Assembly: GCA_903870815.1 (NCBI GenBank)
Contig: CAIQEI010000095.1
Span: forward strand, 1-32,677
Length of the DNA stretch: 32,677 nucleotides
Direction of reading: 5' to 3'
Source: an uncultured Verrucomicrobia subdivision 3 bacterium
GTDB lineage: Bacteria > Verrucomicrobiota > Verrucomicrobiia > Limisphaerales > UBA11358
Shown here: one piece after another, positions 2,115-24,487 of the stretch
How the letters are laid out: the number at the start of each line of letters is the position of its first letter
Numbering within the stretch: the first letter of the stretch is position 1
Notes under the pieces: model-generated
What the model saw: the letters and a program-made list of their open reading frames with translations, nothing else
Told to the model about the DNA's origin: nothing
Database searches by the model: none
Made by a program: the position numbers and the translations under genes

Positions 2115-5100
2115 CTAAGGCGACGCCACCCGATAGAAACGAACGCGGTAGTTGGTGGCCGTGCGGTCGGTAAAATTGAACACCGGATTGGCGGCGGTAA
2201 AATTGGTGAGGTCGGCCCACGCTACCGGAACCTGCGCTAGGTTCGTCGCGGCCTGGATGCGGTAGCTGAAATTGGTCTGCAAATTCAGCGCGAAAGCGAA
2301 CCCGTTGGCAAGGGCCAGATAGGGGCCAGCGAAACTGGCCGACGGGACGGGCGCGTTGGTAGCCAGGAAGGCAAAACTGAATTCGCTGGAGTCGCCGCCC
2401 GCCGAAGTCGCCGTGGCGGTGAAGTACTGTCCGGCATAATTACCACTGCTATTGGTCAGCGAGAAATTGGCATTGCCGGAGCCATCAGTGGTCACGCTGA
2501 CGGTGCCGGCGTAAAACCGGCCCTGACCATAGCCGGAAGGATCAGCGGTGAAACCACGATAGACATCAATGAAATATGTGCGGCTCGTCAGGCTATAGAA
2601 TTTACCAAGGACAATTGTGCTACCGGCGTAACCAAAGACATTGGTGATGACGGGATAATTCTGAAAATCATTCGGGCCGGCGAGAAAACCGGTGTGGTTG
2701 GCCGTGACCCCGTCGTTGTTCAGGTCAATGCCCAGTGCGCCGTTGCTGAAAATGGAATTACCGCGGATGGCATTGTTGGTGGTGTCCGCATTCAACAGCT
2801 TCACTCCCGGGCCGCCGGCAAACGCGATCACATTGCCAGCGCCTGCGCCAGTGCCGCCGATGACATTGCCGGTCGCACCGGCTTGCACCAACACATTCCC
2901 CTGGCTATTGCCGAGGGCATTGGTGCCCGTGACATCGGCCCCGAGGATATTGCCCTGAACCAGATTGCCGGCGGTACTGGCGTCGGAAATATAAATGCCA
3001 TAACCCCAGAACCCGGAAATTACGTTGCCCGCCCCCGCCACCGGGCCGCCGATGGTGTTGCTGTTCGCGCCTGCGAAAATGATGACGCCCGAGAACCCGC
3101 TACCCACGGGATGGGCACCGTCCGGGCTCACGCCGAGGTAATTTCCCTCGACCACGTTGGCGGCGCTGGCCGGGCTGGCGAGATAGACGCCATAATAGTT
3201 TCCGGAAATGACATTGCGCGCACCGGGTATTGTGCCGCCGATGATGTTGCCAGGACTGCCATAGGGCAGATAGATGCCGGCAAGGGTATTGGGCACGGCG
3301 TTGGTGCCGGTGATGTCGGTGCCGACGTAATTTCCCGCGACGAGGTTATTGCTGGTGTTGACGTCCGTGAAAAAAACTCCGGCGGTAGTGTTGCCGGAAA
3401 TGACATTGCGCGCACCGGCGACCGTGCCACCGATGGTGTTGCCTTGCGCGCCGCCGGCCAGGAGCACGCCTCCCAAGGCATTGGCAATTGCGTTAGTGCC
3501 GCTCGCGCCCAGGCCGATTATATTGCCCTCGACAAAATTCCCAGTGGCCACCGGGTTGCCAATCTCCACGCCGTAATTGCCGTTACCGGAAAGGACATTA
3601 CCCGCGCCGGCCACTGTGCCGCCGATAATATTTTGAATGCCGCCATAAAGGCCGACACCGCTCAACCCGTTGCCCAGCGAAGCCTGACCGCTGGCATTCA
3701 AGCCAAGATAATTTCCGTCGATGACGTTGCCAACCGTGTTGGTCATAAAGATGCCATATTGCAGGTTGCCGGATAGAATATTCCGCACGAGCCCATTAGT
3801 GCCGCCAATGGTGTTCCCGCCCGCGCCGCCGCCGATGATGACACCGCTTTCGCCGTTAGGCACCGCGTTCGATCCGCTGGCGTCGGGGCCGATGTAATTG
3901 CCGAGGACCGTATTGTTGGTCGTGTTGGCGCCGGTGATGAGGAGGCCGTATTGGAGATTACCGGACAAGATATTTCGTGCGCCGCTGTTCGTCCCACCGA
4001 TAATATTGCCACTGGAACCGTTGCCGATAAAGACACCGCTCAACCCGTTGGGAACGGCGTTTGATCCGCTGGCGCCGGTGCCGATGTAATTGCCGAGAAT
4101 GACGTTGCCGGTCGTGTTCGAGTCGGTAATGAAAACGCCATATTGCGAATTACCAGAAAGGACATTCCGCGCCAGCGCGTTGGTGCCGCCGATGACATTG
4201 CCGCCCGCGCCATTGGCTATGAGAATTCCCTGGTATGCGTTCGGCGCGGCGTTGGTGCCACCGGCACCCAGACCGAACCAGCAGCCGGAAATGGTGTTAT
4301 TGGTCGCATCCGCATATACCAGCGTGAGGCCGTTCCAGTCAAAGCCGGTGAACGAGAGGTTTTTGATCTGGTTGCTTGAAGAGTAAACCAGGACGGTGTC
4401 CGACGTGGACGTTTCAGGAATAATCTGCAAGCCGTCCACTACAATCACCGGCTGATTCGTGAAGCCCCGCTGCGTGGAACCGTCAATCACCATGCCGTTT
4501 GCCACCAGCGGCGGCAGGTGGCCCGTTAGATGGATATTGAACACACCATTGCTGTAGCCGGCGTCGCTCACCGGGATGTTGAACTTAACCGTCGTACCGG
4601 GATTGTCGGTCGCGTAGTAAATCGCCGCGCGCAGACTGCCGGGACCGACATCGGCGGTGGTGGTGACGAGGTTGGTGAGCGGCACGACGGGCGGACCGTA
4701 AAGATACGCCAGCGCCGCGCGGTCGCCGGGGCTGAGACAGTAGTTGCCCAGGCGGAACTGGTAGCGGGGAAAATACGGCGGCTTGGGCTGCTGCGTGGGG
4801 GCCACGCCGGGATTGGTCGAATCAAAATCCCAGCCCAAATGCATGACCGACTCAAAATCGTAAGGGCCGTTGGTAACGGTGGTCGGATCGATCTGAAAAT
4901 AGAAAAGATTGCCGGGCGTGACGTTGTTGGAGATCACCGTCAGAAAGTTGGTCTGGTCAACGCGAATATTTTCATGGTTGAAACCGAACGAATGGCCCAT
5001 CTCGTGCGCGACCTGCGCGCGGCTGAGGCTGGAAACGGTGACCACCTGCGGATTGGTGCCGGGGAAGACGTGGTTAAGAAAGTTGGTGTTGTAATCGAAC

Positions 5101-5390
5101 AGAATCCAGTGCGTCTGGCTGGTGTGCGAGACGAACTTCACGTTCCCGGCCAGCTCCCATTCGCGCAGTCCGGCAAGATAGGTATTCGTCTGCGCGGCGG
5201 TTAGCGTGTTGGTAAATTCATACGGCACGATGCCATTGGTCCACGGCACGGTCGCGGGCGTGGTGCCGGCGTAGAAATTCCCCGCCGAAATCGAACCGGA
5301 AGCCAGCAGCCACACAACTCCAGCCAGAAACAACCATTCCCTCCGCCGGCGGACAGCCGGACCAGCCTGTTTTAGAATGGCACCAATCAT
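2115..5390 (-). CDS. Secreted astacin-like metalloprotease with CSLREA and beta-helix repeats
   Basis: Likely secreted protein of 1091 residues from the ATG at 5390. A signal peptide (RRRREW then a hydrophobic core ending ASGSISAG) is followed by an astacin/M12A-like domain: zinc motif HEMGHSFGFNHE at about 129-140, then RVDQ, and Met-turn SVMHL at about 181-185. A CSLREA-like stretch (VGPGSLRAAIYYA) leads into about eight beta-helix repeats of 62-64 residues (about 371-877). The last 55 residues form the YRIQA-TNL...RFYRV module typical of secreted verrucomicrobial proteins. The start is ambiguous: AGGAGGTG lies directly against the ATG at 5390; ATG 5405 and TTG 5429 are in frame upstream. 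Astacin normally has Tyr after the Met-turn His; here it is Leu. Proteolysis is inferred from the motifs; substrate unknown. The beta-helix suggests surface display or glycan binding. Confidence 0.85.
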   Translation of the reverse strand: MIGAILKQAGPAVRRRREWLFLAGVVWLLASGSISAGNFYAGTTPATVPWTNGIVPYEFTNTLTAAQTNTYLAGLREWELAGNVKFVSHTSQTHWILFDYNTNFLNHVFPGTNPQVVTVSSLSRAQVAHEMGHSFGFNHENIRVDQTNFLTVISNNVTPGNLFYFQIDPTTVTNGPYDFESVMHLGWDFDSTNPGVAPTQQPKPPYFPRYQFRLGNYCLSPGDRAALAYLYGPPVVPLTNLVTTTADVGPGSLRAAIYYATDNPGTTVKFNIPVSDAGYSNGVFNIHLTGHLPPLVANGMVIDGSTQRGFTNQPVIVVDGLQIIPETSTSDTVLVYSSSNQIKNLSFTGFDWNGLTLVYADATNNTISGCWFGLGAGGTNAAPNAYQGILIANGAGGNVIGGTNALARNVLSGNSQYGVFITDSNTTGNVILGNYIGTGASGSNAVPNGLSGVFIGNGSSGNIIGGTNSGARNILSGNLQYGLLITGANTTNNTVLGNYIGPDASGSNAVPNGESGVIIGGGAGGNTIGGTNGLVRNILSGNLQYGIFMTNTVGNVIDGNYLGLNASGQASLGNGLSGVGLYGGIQNIIGGTVAGAGNVLSGNGNYGVEIGNPVATGNFVEGNIIGLGASGTNAIANALGGVLLAGGAQGNTIGGTVAGARNVISGNTTAGVFFTDVNTSNNLVAGNYVGTDITGTNAVPNTLAGIYLPYGSPGNIIGGTIPGARNVISGNYYGVYLASPASAANVVEGNYLGVSPDGAHPVGSGFSGVIIFAGANSNTIGGPVAGAGNVISGFWGYGIYISDASTAGNLVQGNILGADVTGTNALGNSQGNVLVQAGATGNVIGGTGAGAGNVIAFAGGPGVKLLNADTTNNAIRGNSIFSNGALGIDLNNDGVTANHTGFLAGPNDFQNYPVITNVFGYAGSTIVLGKFYSLTSRTYFIDVYRGFTADPSGYGQGRFYAGTVSVTTDGSGNANFSLTNSSGNYAGQYFTATATSAGGDSSEFSFAFLATNAPVPSASFAGPYLALANGFAFALNLQTNFSYRIQAATNLAQVPVAWADLTNFTAANPVFNFTDRTATNYRVRFYRVASP
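2760..4280 (-). repeat. About eight in-frame ~190-bp repeats encoding beta-helix turns
   Basis: Eight consecutive units of 62-64 residues (about 186-192 bp) share the pattern GxNAxPN-x-GV-I-x-GN-IGGT-x-ARNVxSGN-x-YGV-x-NxVxGNYIG. Units 1-3 are the most alike (IGGTN, SGNxQYG, GASGSNAVPNG); units 7 and 8 are the most diverged. This is protein-level tandem duplication within one ORF, not a CRISPR or an intergenic repeat. Boundaries are approximate. Confidence 0.8.
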
Positions 5391-5584
5391 CACCTCCTGA
5401 CACATAAGCGGATTAGATGCTTTCTGCAAGCATGTTTAATTTCCAGCGGGGGTTCAAGGAAGCTGGTAATTGGCGGATAGTGATTTGAACAGTGGTTGGA
5501 TAGGTTTGGATTCAGCCGGATTGGAACGGGTCGGGCTTCCCATATGGTGTTTCCCCACCTGAATTTGCCGGAGGGAAAATGAAA

Positions 5585-13713: not shown

Positions 13714-13755
13714 ACTTGCCAACGCGTGGTGCTTGGATTCAAACTGAACAAACTG

Positions 13756-16701
13756 ATGCCAAAAGACAACCAGCCCGACCCGAGAAAAAAATTTGCACCA
13801 TGCCTATTGCCGTGGCTGCTGGGCGTGATGATGCTGCTGGTCTATGGGCTAACGCTAAACCACTGGGTAACGCTGGCGAACATCGTGCCGGTGGCGAAGG
13901 TGGCCGGTTACCTCTGGCAGCCGGAATTCTACAATCCACTGCTGTTCCTAGCCACCTGGCCGTTCCGCTGGCTGTCACCCGCAAAGATTCCGCTGGCCTT
14001 GAACGTTTTTTCCGCCGTCTGCGCGGCGGCAGCCCTTGGACTTTTGGCGCGTTCGGTGGCGTTGCTGCCGCATGACCGCACCGAGGCGGAACGGGTCCGC
14101 GAACGCAGCGACTTCGCGTTCCTCACGAGCCGGAGCGCCTGGTTTCCGCCGGTACTGGCGGTGGTAATGCTGGGCTTGGAATATGGCTACTGGCAGAACG
14201 CGACCAGTTTCACCGGCGAATCGTTGAATATCCTGCTCTTTGCGACCGTCATCTGGCTATTATTGGAATTTCGGCTGGATGAACGGCAGGGCCGGCTCTA
14301 TCTCGCGGCTTTGATTTACGGCGCGGGCTTGACGGAAAACTGGGCGCTGGTCGGATTCCTGCCGGTGTTCGTCATCGCAATCCTCTGGCTGCGCGGACTG
14401 GAATTTTTCAATGTCCGGTTTCTGGTCCGCATGACGTTGTGCGCACTGGCGGGCATGTGCTTCTTTCTGGTGCTCCCGATCGTCGGTAAGTTTTCTGGAA
14501 ATTATCCCGTGAGCTTATGGGAAATGCTCAAGCCGGCGTGGCGTCTGGACTGGCAGGTGGTCAAGGCCATTGGCATCGCCGACGTGCGGCACAACCTGAT
14601 CCTGATGTCGGTAACGACATTTTTGCCGCTGCTGGTCATGTCCATCCGCTGGAGCGCGAGCTTTGGCGATGCCAGCCGGATCGGCACTTCGATGGTGAGT
14701 TATCTGTTTCACCTTGTCCACGCGGTGATTTTCACGGTTTGCGTCTGGGTGATGTTTGACGCGCCGTTCAGTCCCGGCGAGTTGAGCCTGGGTTCACCCG
14801 CCCTGACGATGTATTACCTATCCGCGCTGGGCGTGGGTTATTATTGTGGCTATTACCTGCTCGTGTTCGGGAAAAATGCCATGCCAACCCGGAGGAATCC
14901 CCGGCCCCTGCCGGCCCTGCCCAAACGGTTTAATTCGTTATCACCGGTGATATATTTTGGGGTCTTCGCAGCGGCGGCACTGGCCGTCGGCGCACTCACT
15001 TATAAAAATTTTCCGCTCATCCGCTCCGTCAACGACGACACGCTCCTCAAATACGCGCAGTTGACGGAACAAAGCCTGCCGTCCGGCGGCGGGATTTTGT
15101 TGAGCGACGCCGAAGGCATCAGTTCCAGCCCGCAGACCCGGGCCCTGCTCATGAAGGCGGTACTGGCCCGCGATGGCCGCGACAAGCAATTTCTCGTCGT
15201 GGAAACCGATTCATTAAAGTGGGCACCCTACTTCCGTTTTCTCCACAAGCAATCCCCGCAAAAATGGCCGCAGGTTGTCGGCGAAAAGGAGATGGGCGGC
15301 ATCAGCCCAAATGGTATCCTCAGCATATTAAACCAGCTCTCCAAAAGTAACACCATCTGCTATCTCAACCCCAGCTTCGGCTACTATTTTGAACTGTTCT
15401 ATCTGGAACCGCACGGTTTGACCTACCAGCTCAAGCTACTGCCGGATGAAACGCTGATGCCGCCGTCCCTATCCATCAACCTGATAACCGAGAATCAAAA
15501 TTTCTGGAACGAATTTGCACAAACTGAACTCCCGCGCCTGCAAATGGCGCCGAAGCCCCGCGATCCCAACGCCATCCCCAAGAACTTTGCCGAATGGCTG
15601 CTCATGCACCTGCACGGCCAGTCGGATTTCAATCCCAACGTCCAGCTCGTCAACAATTTCTATTCCCGCTCCCTCGATTATTGGGGCGTCGAACTCCAGC
15701 GCGCCGGGCGGCTGCCCGCCGCCGCCGACTGTTTTACAAACGCGCAAAGCATCAATCCCGACAACATCACCGCGGCTATCAATCTCGAGTTCAACCACTC
15801 ACTCCAGGCCGGAATCACCACCACCATTGACCCGCAGCGCGTCACGCCCGACCAGTTCGGCAAATCACGCGACTGGAACGCGGTCATGAACGCCAACGGC
15901 CCGTTTGACGAGCCCAGCTTCATCTTCGCCAACAGCCTCCTGCTCGCCCAAGGCGGCCTGATGCGCCAGGCCATCGCGCCGTTCACCCGCGTCCGCCAGC
16001 TCGCACCGGACAATTTCCCCGTCCGCCTCTGGCTCGCGCAGCTTTACCTGTACAATCGGCTCCCCGATCGCGCGCTGGAAGCCCTGCATGATCCGATGAC
16101 CCAGCCGCACCGGTTTTCGCTGACCGAGAGCAACTCCGCCGAACTCAACCTGCTCGCTTCGGCCGGTTACTTTCAAAAAAACGAGCTGCCGCGCGGCGTG
16201 GAACTGCTGGAACGAGAAATCTCCCGCCACCCTGATGATGGCGCGCTCCTGACCATCGCCGCCCGAGCCTTTTTCATGGGCGGACTTTACACCAACGCTC
16301 TCCGGGTCATTGATCATCGCCTGACCCAGACGCCCAACGACCCGCAATGGCTCTACGGCCAAGGATTCGCCAACCTACAGATTGGTAATTACAGCCGGGC
16401 CATCACCGCGCTCACCCGCGTCATGGAAGTGACCACCAACGACCCCAACGCCCGTTTCAGCCGCGCCATTGCCTACCTCAAGAGCGACCAGTTGGATCTC
16501 GCCCGGGCGGACTACGCCGAACTGCAGACCATCTATACCAATTCAATCCAGATTGCCTATGGACTTGGCGAAATAGCCTGGCGTCAGCACAACACCAACG
16601 AAGCCGCACGGAATTATCAGCTTTACCTGGGTTACGCGCCGACCAACTCCGCTGAATCCAAAACCGTGCGGGATCGCCTGACACAGTTACGCGGACCATG
16701 A
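13756..16701 (+). CDS. DUF2723-like multi-pass membrane protein with C-terminal TPRs, lacking the acidic DSGE motif
   Basis: Membrane protein of 981 residues (ATG 13756; an in-frame GTG lies at 13726). The N-terminal 400 residues hold about ten hydrophobic segments arranged as in DUF2723 putative GT-C glycosyltransferases; YLAALIYGAGLTENW matches YLAMLIYGWIATIHQ of the paralogue at 20822. A soluble domain follows, then five or more TPRs over the last 330 residues (AIAPFTRVRQLAPDN, NALRVIDHRLTQTPNDPQWLYGQG, AITALTRVMEVTTNDPNARFSRA). The first loop, where the paralogue has LTLEDSGELCTG, reads VTLANIVPVAKVAG here, with no acidic residue. The protein may therefore be catalytically inactive or use another site. 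Its stop is four bases from the GT4 start, implying an operon. Substrate unknown. Confidence 0.82.
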   Translation: MPKDNQPDPRKKFAPCLLPWLLGVMMLLVYGLTLNHWVTLANIVPVAKVAGYLWQPEFYNPLLFLATWPFRWLSPAKIPLALNVFSAVCAAAALGLLARSVALLPHDRTEAERVRERSDFAFLTSRSAWFPPVLAVVMLGLEYGYWQNATSFTGESLNILLFATVIWLLLEFRLDERQGRLYLAALIYGAGLTENWALVGFLPVFVIAILWLRGLEFFNVRFLVRMTLCALAGMCFFLVLPIVGKFSGNYPVSLWEMLKPAWRLDWQVVKAIGIADVRHNLILMSVTTFLPLLVMSIRWSASFGDASRIGTSMVSYLFHLVHAVIFTVCVWVMFDAPFSPGELSLGSPALTMYYLSALGVGYYCGYYLLVFGKNAMPTRRNPRPLPALPKRFNSLSPVIYFGVFAAAALAVGALTYKNFPLIRSVNDDTLLKYAQLTEQSLPSGGGILLSDAEGISSSPQTRALLMKAVLARDGRDKQFLVVETDSLKWAPYFRFLHKQSPQKWPQVVGEKEMGGISPNGILSILNQLSKSNTICYLNPSFGYYFELFYLEPHGLTYQLKLLPDETLMPPSLSINLITENQNFWNEFAQTELPRLQMAPKPRDPNAIPKNFAEWLLMHLHGQSDFNPNVQLVNNFYSRSLDYWGVELQRAGRLPAAADCFTNAQSINPDNITAAINLEFNHSLQAGITTTIDPQRVTPDQFGKSRDWNAVMNANGPFDEPSFIFANSLLLAQGGLMRQAIAPFTRVRQLAPDNFPVRLWLAQLYLYNRLPDRALEALHDPMTQPHRFSLTESNSAELNLLASAGYFQKNELPRGVELLEREISRHPDDGALLTIAARAFFMGGLYTNALRVIDHRLTQTPNDPQWLYGQGFANLQIGNYSRAITALTRVMEVTTNDPNARFSRAIAYLKSDQLDLARADYAELQTIYTNSIQIAYGLGEIAWRQHNTNEAARNYQLYLGYAPTNSAESKTVRDRLTQLRGP

Positions 16702-20821: not shown

Positions 20822-23800
20822 ATGAGCAACGACAAAAAAAACAAGCCCGCCGCACCAAAAACGGCCACCCCGGCCAAGCCCACTGCTCCAGCCATTCAGA
20901 TCAAGGTGCCGCCGATGTTCCGTCGGATTGACTGGCTGGCCTTGATTATCACGTTCGGCACCGTCTGGGCGGTTTACCTCTGGACGCTGGCGCCGGAGCT
21001 GACGCTGGAGGATTCAGGTGAGCTATGCACGGGTTCGTATTATGCGGGCATTCCGCATCCGCCGGGCTATCCGTTCTGGGCGATTTACAGCTGGTTCTGG
21101 ACCTTCATCCTGCCCATCGGCAACGTGGCGTGGCGAGTCGAGGTAGGGCAGTCGTTTGCGGCGGCGATGGGCTGCGGCCTGCTGGCGCTGATGGTATCAC
21201 GCGGCAGCAGCATGTTGATCGAGGGAATAGAGGATTTGAAAGCCATTCCGAGCCGCTGGGAAAACCTCATCTGCATGGTGTCGGGTGGTGTGGCGGGGGC
21301 GCTGCTGGGGCTCGGCGGTTTCATGTGGAAGGAGTCGGTGGTCATCAACCGTATTTCGGTGTTCGGCGTGCCGTGGTTGATCGCCATGCTGGTGCTGCTG
21401 ATGCGGTGGATGTATGCGCCGCAGCAAAGCCGTTATCTCTATCTGGCGATGCTCATTTATGGCTGGATCGCAACCATCCATCAAAGTCTCCTGTTGAGCG
21501 CGCCGGGCGTCGAAATCCTGATCGCCCTCATCTCGTTCCGGCTGGGGCGCGACCTGTTCCTCGGCAACAGCGTCATTTACGTCATCATCCTTTATTTTAT
21601 GAGCGCTGGAACGGTGCCGGCGTTGAATGCCATGACGTTCACGGAAAAGACGATTTTTCACATCGTCGGGGTCGGATCAATCCTGGCGGCGGGCTGGTTG
21701 TGGACGAAGACCGGAAAGATTTTGACGGAGTGGAAATCCATTCTATTGATGGGCGTAATGTGGACGGCGGGTGTTCTGGTCTATCTTTACGAACCCGTTT
21801 CTGGGATGACCGATCCGCCCATGCAATGGGGTTATCCGCGCACGGTAGAGGGCTTTTTCCACGCCTTGAGCCGCGGCCAATACGGCACGGGCGAAGGCAC
21901 CAATGTATTTCAGGATCCCACCCGCTTTGCCTGGCAACTCTGGTATCTGGCCAAGGGCTTGTCCGAGTCGTTCAGCTGGGTTTATATGTTTATCGGCCTG
22001 ATACCGTTTCTGTTCATCCGAAAAATGCACCAGCGGGAACGCTCCTGGATTCTGGGGGTGACCACCATTTATCTGTTCCTTTCCGTGCTGCTGGTCATCA
22101 TTTTGAATGTCAGCGCCGATCGTTCCACCTCCGATCTGAACAAGGTTTTCTTCACCGCATCCCACGCGATTTTTGCAATGATGATCGGCTATGGGCTGAC
22201 GATATTGGCCGCCTATGTTGCCACGCATTACGAAAAGATCCGGCGCTGGTGCTTTGTCGGGGGCGGGGTGGCGCTGGTGGTGGCGATTTTCTGCCTGCTG
22301 GACGCGGCGGGCAAACTTTACTACGGCCCAGCCGGCGAAATCAGCCTGTCGCAACTGCCCCACCACATCGCGCTGGCTTTTGACAAGGACCAAAATGGAC
22401 TACCCATTTTTTCCGGCCTCATTCTGGTGGCACTTCCGGTCATTTTCCTCCTCGCCCTGCTGGTTTATCGCAAGCGCGGCCCGGTGCTCATCCTACTCGG
22501 CCTATTCGCCATCACCCCGGTCAGCTCCGGCCTGTCCCACTGGTATAATTGCGAGCAACGCAACCACTGGTTCGGCTACTGGTTCGGCCACGACATGTTC
22601 ACGCCTCCGTTCAAGGATCCCCAGAGCGGCAAACTGAGCTACGACAATTCGCGCCGCGCCGGACTCCTGAAAGACCCGCTGAACGCCAAGCTCATCTATC
22701 CGGAAATGGCGCGCGACACGGTGCTTTTCGGCGGCACCGACCCAGGCCGGTTCTGCCCGACTTATATCATCTTTTGCGAAAGCTTCATTCCGCACCGCTG
22801 CCAGCCGGAACAGGACCAGAAATTTGACCGGCGCGACGTGTACATCATCACCCAAAATGCGCTGGCGGACGGCACTTATTTGGATTATCTCCGCGCCCAA
22901 TACAACCGGTCCAAACAGATTGACCCGCCGTTTTTCAGCGAGCTTTCGAAATATCTCTTCGGCATAGCCTTTGGACCGGCCAATGCCGACTCCGGCCCCT
23001 TTGCGCTCGTGAACCAGGCGCTTTACTACACGCTTGACGTGCCATTCACGAAGTGGGGCACTTACGTGGAAGCCTACCGGCGCAAGGCCGGCGTTTATCC
23101 GCCAAACGAAATTTACATCCCTTCGCCCGAGGATTCGCGGAAATGCTTTCAGGATTACACCGATGATGTCGGCCGGCGCATGTCGCACGATCAACAATTT
23201 CCCAATGAACCCAGGCAGATTCAACCCGGCGAGGAACCCAACATCGTTAGGGATGCCGATGGCCGGGAACAGGTCCAGGTTTCCGGCAATATTGCCGTCA
23301 TGAAGATCAACGGCCTGCTCTGCAAGGTGATTTTTGACAACTGCCCGACGAATGAATTTTACGTCGAGGAAAGTTTCCCGCTCGACTGGATGTATCCCTA
23401 CGAAACCCCGTTCAGCGTCATCATGAAGATCAACCGCAACCCGCTGCCCGAGCTGACGCAAGACGTGTTCGATCTCGACCACAAGTTCTGGAATGATTTC
23501 ACCCCGCGACTTTGCGGCAACTGGATCACCTATGACACCTCCGTCAGCAACATCTGCGACTTCGTCGAACGCACCTACATCCGAAATAATTACAAGGGCT
23601 ACACCGGCGACCGCGCGTTTGTCCGCGACGACGACGCCCAGAAGGCCTTCTCCAAACTACGCAGTTCGCAGGCAGGCATGTATGCCTGGCGCCTGAGCCC
23701 GCAATGCCCGCCGGAATACCGCCAGAAAACCGCCGCCAGCCAGGCCGCCCTGATTCGTGAGACCGACTATGCTTTCAAGCAGGCCTTCGCCTTCTGTCCA

Positions 23801-24487
23801 TATAGCCCGGAAGCCGTGTTTCGTTACATCAACTTCCTGATGCAAATGGCCCAGTCCGAGGAAATGGCCGGACGCCCCGATCAGGCCTCACACCTGTTCG
23901 ATGACGCCATCCTCGTCGCCCAAACCTGCAAGAAACTGGATCCTTACAACGACCAGATCACTGGCCTCATCAAAACTGTGCAGGACTACAAGACCCAGTC
24001 GATGGGCCACGCTCAGGCCGTCAGCCAGATTAACCAGATGGAAGCCACCGCCCATAGCAACCCCAATGACGTCCGTAACCTGATCTCCCTCGGCGTCTAC
24101 TACGCTCAGATGCAGCAAACCAACCGCGCCGTCGAACTCTTCGACGAGGCGCTCACCAGCACCAACCTGAAATATTCCGAAGCCAACGCCGTTGCCGGCT
24201 ACTTTTTCCAACTCAACAACCTGCCCCGGATGCTGGCTGCTCTGCAAAAACTCGTCGACCTCGCGCCGAACGAACCCGAACCGCGCTACAACGTAGCCGC
24301 ACTTCACGCTTACCTCGGACAGACCGCACCCGCGCTCGCCAGCCTCAAGGTCGCGCTCGACCTGAACGCGCAGCGGCTCAAGACCAACCCCGCTGCAGCC
24401 GATTTGCTTGCCCATGCTCGCTCCGACGCCCAGCTGAACCCCCTGCGCGGCCTCCCGGAATTCCAGAAACTCGTCCCGCCCCAGTAA
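20822..24487 (+). CDS. DUF2723 putative GT-C glycosyltransferase with C-terminal TPRs
   Basis: Large membrane protein of 1221 residues. A Lys/Pro/Ala-rich cytoplasmic head (1-35) is followed by about twelve hydrophobic segments to residue 590. The first extracytoplasmic loop carries the DUF2723 signature LAPELTLEDSGELCTGSYYA then GIPHPPGYPFWA; acidic residues there resemble the catalytic loop of PMT/ArnT-type GT-C enzymes. A soluble region (about 600-950) and degenerate TPRs at the C-terminus (AVELFDEALTSTNLKYSEANA, MLAALQKLVDLAPNEPEPRYN) follow, probably outside the cytoplasm. The likely role is transfer of a polyprenol-linked sugar to proteins or envelope glycans; this is inference. Start ATG 20822, without a clear Shine-Dalgarno. 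Confidence 0.88.
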   Translation: MSNDKKNKPAAPKTATPAKPTAPAIQIKVPPMFRRIDWLALIITFGTVWAVYLWTLAPELTLEDSGELCTGSYYAGIPHPPGYPFWAIYSWFWTFILPIGNVAWRVEVGQSFAAAMGCGLLALMVSRGSSMLIEGIEDLKAIPSRWENLICMVSGGVAGALLGLGGFMWKESVVINRISVFGVPWLIAMLVLLMRWMYAPQQSRYLYLAMLIYGWIATIHQSLLLSAPGVEILIALISFRLGRDLFLGNSVIYVIILYFMSAGTVPALNAMTFTEKTIFHIVGVGSILAAGWLWTKTGKILTEWKSILLMGVMWTAGVLVYLYEPVSGMTDPPMQWGYPRTVEGFFHALSRGQYGTGEGTNVFQDPTRFAWQLWYLAKGLSESFSWVYMFIGLIPFLFIRKMHQRERSWILGVTTIYLFLSVLLVIILNVSADRSTSDLNKVFFTASHAIFAMMIGYGLTILAAYVATHYEKIRRWCFVGGGVALVVAIFCLLDAAGKLYYGPAGEISLSQLPHHIALAFDKDQNGLPIFSGLILVALPVIFLLALLVYRKRGPVLILLGLFAITPVSSGLSHWYNCEQRNHWFGYWFGHDMFTPPFKDPQSGKLSYDNSRRAGLLKDPLNAKLIYPEMARDTVLFGGTDPGRFCPTYIIFCESFIPHRCQPEQDQKFDRRDVYIITQNALADGTYLDYLRAQYNRSKQIDPPFFSELSKYLFGIAFGPANADSGPFALVNQALYYTLDVPFTKWGTYVEAYRRKAGVYPPNEIYIPSPEDSRKCFQDYTDDVGRRMSHDQQFPNEPRQIQPGEEPNIVRDADGREQVQVSGNIAVMKINGLLCKVIFDNCPTNEFYVEESFPLDWMYPYETPFSVIMKINRNPLPELTQDVFDLDHKFWNDFTPRLCGNWITYDTSVSNICDFVERTYIRNNYKGYTGDRAFVRDDDAQKAFSKLRSSQAGMYAWRLSPQCPPEYRQKTAASQAALIRETDYAFKQAFAFCPYSPEAVFRYINFLMQMAQSEEMAGRPDQASHLFDDAILVAQTCKKLDPYNDQITGLIKTVQDYKTQSMGHAQAVSQINQMEATAHSNPNDVRNLISLGVYYAQMQQTNRAVELFDEALTSTNLKYSEANAVAGYFFQLNNLPRMLAALQKLVDLAPNEPEPRYNVAALHAYLGQTAPALASLKVALDLNAQRLKTNPAAADLLAHARSDAQLNPLRGLPEFQKLVPPQ

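What the first reader, a model, noticed from the sequence alone, without database searches (positions are those of the whole stretch)
2115..5390. Astacin-like protease fused to CSLREA and beta-helix domains
An M12A-type zinc motif and Met-turn precede a long beta-helix and a verrucomicrobial C-terminal module. Such a fusion could be a surface protease held on a polysaccharide. The Tyr that normally follows the Met-turn His in astacins (SxMHY) is Leu here, so the fifth zinc ligand seems absent.
Basis: partly seen in the sequence, partly recalled or inferred. Interest (0 to 1): 0.5.

Follow-up and report, generated by a model that had tools for sequence, protein, structure and literature searches.

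The report
Secreted astacin-like protease lacking switch tyrosine
A bacterium encodes what looks like an exported zinc protease of the astacin kind mounted on a long beta-helix stalk, and its whole protein lineage has swapped a tyrosine thought to matter for catalysis for leucine, which makes it a natural test of what that tyrosine does.

Summary
It is not a matrixin: best structural match BMP1/astacin, Z 20.8; best matrixin Z 11.5. The label CSLREA is only loosely right (GSLRAA; no NCBIfam match).

The Met-turn Leu is real and fixed: of 69 domains compared, 10 have Leu (all one kind, three families of one order), 58 have Tyr, including 3 of 3 closest outgroup proteins, and one lacks the motif. 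One change on the tree, clade support 100/100. The other catalytic residues are invariant and the core is strongly constrained, so decay is unlikely. The clade also has no room for a propeptide, and the window's domain no disulfide. Most likely an active exported endopeptidase with a matrixin-like three-His zinc site; activity is untested. Polysaccharide holding is unsupported beyond weak fold resemblance. Two kinds of astacin/beta-helix fusion recur in this class; I found neither described. New variant of a known kind.

The parts
2115..5390 (-). coding sequence of the fusion protein (ATG start at 5390; an upstream in-frame TTG at 5429 is possible and is residue 1 of the numbering used here)
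5283..5390 (-). signal-peptide-like N-terminus, residues 14-49 (RRRRE, then hydrophobic LFLAGVVWLLASGSI from residue 33, likely cut before GNFYAG); no room for a propeptide before Trp63
   Evidence: hydropathy; the AGNFY-type start is shared by the Leu clade; no signal-peptide predictor was available
4710..5243 (-). astacin-type catalytic domain, residues 63-240
   Evidence: PF01400 66.9 bits; fold; VIA Z 20.8 to BMP1
4971..5006 (-). zinc-binding motif HEMGHSFGFNHE, residues 142-153, with the astacin-specific Glu153
4830..4853 (-). Met-turn ESVMHLGW, residues 193-200; Leu198 (4836-4838) replaces the zinc-binding/switch Tyr
4386..4673 (-). GSLRAA N-terminal cap of the beta-helix, about residues 253-348
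   Evidence: conserved in the clade; homologous to the GSLREA cap of a stand-alone beta-helix protein; strand-helix-strand in the model
2733..4385 (-). right-handed parallel beta-helix, about residues 349-899; eight copies of a repeat of about 64 residues (N-x-IGG at 411, 475, 539, 600, 664, 728, 791, 855)
2406..2732 (-). linker / predicted beta region, residues 900-1008, low-confidence model
   Evidence: pLDDT under 50 from model residue 857
2118..2405 (-). C-terminal module ending FYRVASP, residues 1009-1104
   Evidence: profile A6 finds 11 other copies in the genome, all ending 0-4 residues before a stop codon

Best explanation
A secreted, probably surface-retained zinc endopeptidase. Export by an N-terminal signal peptide (inferred) gives a protein whose first folded part is an astacin-type catalytic head, without a propeptide, carried on a rod-like beta-helix and finished by a C-terminal module shared with other proteins of the genome, which I take to be a sorting or attachment domain (inferred). 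His142, His146 and His152 bind the zinc and Glu143 activates the water (by homology). Because Tyr is replaced by Leu198, the resting zinc should be four-coordinate (three His plus water) and the oxyanion should be stabilised without the tyrosine switch, as in metzincins that lack that Tyr. Shown here: the anatomy, the fold class, fixation of Leu, and constraint on the catalytic core. Inferred: export, activity, surface retention, substrate.
For: Astacin profile and fold. Zinc ligands, Glu143, Glu153, Arg156, Asp158, Met196 and His197 invariant in 10 of 10 Leu-clade and 3 of 3 Tyr-outgroup sequences. Mean pN/pS 0.27 in the protease domain, 0.12 in the catalytic core, 0.27 in the cap, 0.52 in the helix, over 36 pairs of 9 of the 10 sequences; same picture in a syntenic pair next to glgB. 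The Leu clade is one change, support 100/100. Diagnostic changes next to the zinc site accompany Leu: Phe150, Asn154, Ile155 against Leu, His, Gln in the Tyr outgroup; position 200 is Trp in 9 of 10 against Arg, which suggests a remodelled rather than a decayed site. Precedent: archaemetzincin has Phe at this position (PMC3427221, passage).
Against: No activity data. The Tyr is described as stabilising the reaction intermediate in astacins (PMC9848320), so the rate could be much reduced. One of 11 members (L052, genome G015) has lost the Met-turn and most of the helix in one open frame, which may be assembly collapse or may mean the head can be dispensed with. The C-terminal module's role is a guess; its model is of low confidence.
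Confidence: 0.6

Rival explanations
1. A pseudoprotease: the head binds zinc but no longer cleaves, and serves as a binding or structural cap on the beta-helix.
For: Loss of a residue that is Tyr in 58 of 58 other domains with a Met-turn; no propeptide and thus no latency to keep; one member lacks the Met-turn (L052).
Against: General base Glu143 and all three His are invariant in 10 of 10; the core is the most constrained part of the gene (pN/pS 0.12). Pseudoproteases as a rule lose one of these (recalled).
Confidence: 0.2
2. A weak or self-directed enzyme: slow turnover lets a propeptide-free protease fold and be exported safely, and it cleaves a single partner or itself at the surface.
For: Tyr loss and propeptide absence occur in the same clade; no conserved partner gene next to it.
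Against: The Tyr-bearing sister group also lacks a propeptide, so the Tyr loss is not needed for safe export without one.
Confidence: 0.12
3. The beta-helix is the enzyme (a polysaccharide lyase, hydrolase or epimerase) and the astacin head clears protein from a glycan-protein matrix.
For: After the astacins the best Foldseek matches of the full model are PL6 lyases, a fucoidan lyase, DFA-IIIase and alginate epimerases (E 2e-4 to 4e-3).
Against: These are weak, repeat-driven matches (rmsd 11-23 A, 8-16% identity); an adhesin (PfbA, 4mr0) scores as well; the helix is the fastest-changing part and open-frame length varies from 969 to 1126 aa among members not cut by a contig end.
Confidence: 0.08

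Closest known systems
Astacin family M12A (astacin, BMP1/tolloid, meprins, bacterial myroilysin and flavastacin)
   Same: Fold, HEXXHXXGXXHE, Met-turn, C-terminal helix; PF01400 over its cut-off.
   Different: Leu for the zinc-binding Tyr; no propeptide; a single Cys in the domain (Cys231), so none of the usual disulfides; EXXRXD kept but not the following RD; fused to a beta-helix.
Second astacin/beta-helix fusion of the same class (kind B here, 13 sequences)
   Same: Protease head, GSLRAA-type cap in most, beta-helix.
   Different: Has a propeptide-like stretch, keeps Tyr (MHY or MEY), and carries a TSP3-like segment near the C-terminus in the one tested by Pfam, L063; separate clade, support 100/99.
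Matrixins (M10) and archaemetzincin
   Same: Metzincin zinc site; archaemetzincin also lacks the switch Tyr, with Phe in its place (PMC3427221).
   Different: Overall fold match of matrixins far weaker (Z 11.5 against 20.8); no Pfam Peptidase_M10 match at E<=1. Archaemetzincins were not compared one by one.
Stand-alone GSLREA beta-helix proteins of the same genus and order
   Same: Homologous cap and helix.
   Different: No protease head; no other copy of the cap in the window's own genome at the sensitivity.

Membership tests
Astacin M12A | match to PF01400 over the curated cut-off | tested here: met
   66.9 bits, cut-off 22.5
Astacin M12A | astacin fold | tested here: met
   Z 20.8 BMP1 3edh (187 residues, 2.4 A), 20.3 astacin 1ast; best matrixin 11.5
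Astacin M12A | HEXXHXXGXXH plus family-specific Glu | tested here: met
   HEMGHSFGFNHE, invariant apart from position 151 in 10 of 10
Astacin M12A | EXXRXDRD after the zinc motif | tested here: not met
   EXXRXD present; RD replaced (QT, AT, AA or QA) in the Leu clade
Astacin M12A | SIMHY motif with zinc-binding Tyr | tested here: not met
   SVMHL in 10 of 10; Met and His kept
Astacin M12A | propeptide or prodomain (34-486 residues among those surveyed in PMC9848320) | tested here: not met
   about 13 residues between the likely signal-peptide end and Trp63; the cut site itself was not predicted by a dedicated tool
Astacin M12A | two or three disulfides in the catalytic domain | tested here: not met
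   one Cys (231) in the domain, next at 383 (window protein)
Astacin M12A | zinc-dependent endopeptidase activity | not testable with these tools
   needs purified protein
Matrixin M10 | better match than to astacin | tested here: not met
CSLREA domain TIGR04214 | match over the curated cut-off of 25 bits | tested here: not met
   no match for the window protein (E<=1; E<=10 for residues 251-1104); even the stand-alone GSLREA relative L147 gives only 12.8 bits
Right-handed parallel beta-helix | coiled parallel strands with regular rungs | tested here: met
   AlphaFold2 model, pLDDT mostly 70-94 over residues 349-899; sister L053 passes PF13229, 47.1 bits

The most novel reading that the evidence does not exclude
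A natural clade of astacins has abandoned the tyrosine switch, the propeptide and the domain disulfides yet remains an efficient peptidase, with a remodelled zinc pocket (Phe150, Asn154-Ile155, Leu198, Trp200) that takes over the oxyanion role or makes it unnecessary.
Probability: 0.35. Interest if true: 0.55.

Novelty: new variant of a known kind. Interest (0 to 1): 0.4.

Why it matters
The astacin/serralysin tyrosine is held to bind zinc at rest and to stabilise the reaction intermediate. Here evolution supplies both states in closely related proteins: a Leu clade of 10 and a Tyr sister group of 3, both without propeptide and with the same cap and helix. Expressing one of each, with swaps at position 198, would test directly what the tyrosine contributes. 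The survey also bears on the view (PMC9848320, section 2.3) that bacterial astacins are sporadic and sit mostly in animal associates: in this one order 54 of 293 genomes drawn, in several separate clades, have an astacin over the Pfam cut-off. The habitat of these genomes was not given to me, so whether they contradict that view is open.

Tried and rejected
Matrixin or reprolysin identity: rejected on profile and fold scores. Sequencing error or local decay as the cause of Leu198: rejected, since it recurs in 10 genomes. Operon partner: next to eight other genes of this kind (L045-L052) and the Tyr outgroup gene L053, only glgB in L051/G033 is a clear shared neighbour; the other matches to window ORFs were distant (about 30% identity). 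Paper searches for astacin with beta-helix, CSLREA, Y149F and SXMHY gave no description of this fusion or of Leu at this place (I saw listings and starts of abstracts; of PMC9848320 the abstract, section 2.3, part 1 of section 2.1 and passages; of PMC3268031, PMC11674741, PMC6949598 and PMC3427221 passages only). The mutant study of the astacin Tyr (Yiallouros et al. 2000) was seen only as a reference entry; I recall that its Tyr-to-Phe mutant kept a small part of the activity, but no call confirms this. The pN/pS run stopped before the C-terminal part (division by zero from a truncated row). The viral structure library gave tail spikes and other beta-helices and two viral astacin-like proteins, not informative here. 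Not used: search_rna_families, search_dna_similar, viral contigs.

Full report
What is there. From N to C: a basic and hydrophobic signal-like stretch, an astacin domain at 63-240 (PF01400, E 2.4e-18), a GSLRAA cap from about 253, eight repeats of about 64 residues that the full-length model folds as a right-handed parallel beta-helix (residues about 349-899, pLDDT mostly 70-94), a poorly modelled stretch, and a C-terminal module. It lies between glgB and a class II ribonucleotide reductase, with no obvious partner.

Astacin, not matrixin. The sequence search of solved structures finds only astacins (best TLL1, BMP1, crayfish astacin). A model of residues 50-256 on nine aligned sequences (mean pLDDT 76.6, pTM 0.74) matches BMP1 3edh at Z 20.8 over 187 residues (2.4 A) and 1ast at 20.3, while the best matrixin reaches 11.5 (Foldseek also ranks astacins before matrixins).

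The missing tyrosine. I collected 69 distinct astacin domains from the window, from relatives and from the related-loci hits. Left out of that set: the three Legionella-type loci, which read MHY; L061, too short, which reads MHY at its twin L030; the weak matches L023, L024 and L033-L044; and about a dozen places that I did not fetch. Ten have Leu after the Met-turn His, 58 have Tyr, one (L052) has lost the motif. The ten are one kind (window, L045-L051, L093, L094), from three families of one order. All three proteins of the sister group (L053, L143, L144; another family of the class) have Tyr. On a tree of 35 of these domains with that residue masked, the Leu clade has support 100/100, the Leu plus sister clade 100/99, and the state changes once (a quick tree of 68 agrees). 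Since Tyr is the state everywhere else, Leu is most simply derived, though the tree alone cannot tell direction.

Not decay. In the ten, the three zinc His, Glu143, Glu153, Arg156, Asp158, Met196 and His197 do not vary. Mean pN/pS over 36 pairs of nine of the ten is 0.27 for the protease domain, 0.12 for its catalytic core, 0.27 for the cap and 0.52 for the helix. In genome G033 the gene sits next to glgB as in the window: glgB is 91.5% identical at pS 0.50, the protease domain 77% at pS 0.45, the helix 50% at pS 0.55, which fits vertical descent with a fast-changing stalk. Against this, the L052 frame of G015 lacks the Met-turn and most of the helix.

Other departures. The Leu clade and its Tyr sisters have only about 13 residues between the likely signal-peptide end and the first Trp of the domain, against propeptides of 34 residues or more in known astacins (PMC9848320). 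The window's domain has one Cys. The EXXRXDRD motif stops at EXXRXD. Among the positions that separate the Leu clade from its Tyr sisters are several near the zinc site: 150, 154, 155 and 198, with 200 nearly so; others lie elsewhere in the domain.

Modules. The GSLRAA segment is homologous to the GSLREA cap of a stand-alone beta-helix protein of the genus (98.3% probability, 42% identity), so a protease was probably joined to an existing module; in the window's genome no other copy of the cap was found. TIGR04214 itself is not met. The C-terminal module has 12 places in the genome including this one; in the 11 others the frame stops 0-4 residues after the match. That is how a sorting or attachment domain would look, but nothing here shows the function.

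Distribution. In the whole held order (320 genomes) 22 match the head-plus-cap profile at E<=1e-60: 11 of this kind including the window and the damaged L052, and 11 of kind B. Within the genus, 9 of 49 genomes have this kind (L052 counted), 7 kind B, and 9 a small single-domain astacin. In a draw of 387 genomes of the phylum, 8 have an astacin over the cut-off, and the window is the only Leu type among those whose Met-turn was found.

Verdict. A real, conserved variant of a known protease family in an unusual architecture. The best reading is an active exported endopeptidase without the tyrosine switch; the pseudoprotease reading is the main rival and one purification would settle it.

Noticed in passing
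L054-L060, L095-L097, L104, L145, L146: A second astacin/beta-helix fusion (kind B) with a propeptide-like stretch; in 4 of 13 the His after the Met-turn Met is Glu (MEY) while Tyr stays.
   Followed up: partly
L011-L016, L025-L027, L081, L083-L092, L102, L109-L112: Small single-domain astacins of about 245-410 residues with SIMHYRxC-type Met-turns, spread over many families of the order.
   Followed up: no
G000 contigs C170, C12, C33, C66, C14, C175, C153, C25 (two), C62, C155: The C-terminal module, mostly ending in FYR-like residues, closes 11 other proteins of the genome; a candidate secretion or attachment domain without a Pfam name in the one copy tested, L161.
   Followed up: partly
L101: An astacin-like domain in which the Met-turn Met itself reads Glu (SVEHY) while Tyr is kept.
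   Followed up: no
L052:7702-9081: A member of the Leu kind in one open frame that lacks the Met-turn and most of the beta-helix; deletion or assembly collapse between repeats.
   Followed up: no
window 13726-16701 and 20822-24487: Two large TMEM260-like/TPR proteins (Pfam PF11028 plus TPR) in one window, which may mean protein O-glycosylation; a 30% identical frame stands beside the protease gene in L051.
   Followed up: no
L067: A record titled Bordetella parapertussis (MAG) whose two astacins group with an Acidobacteriaceae protein in the tree; the title may be a misassignment.
   Followed up: no
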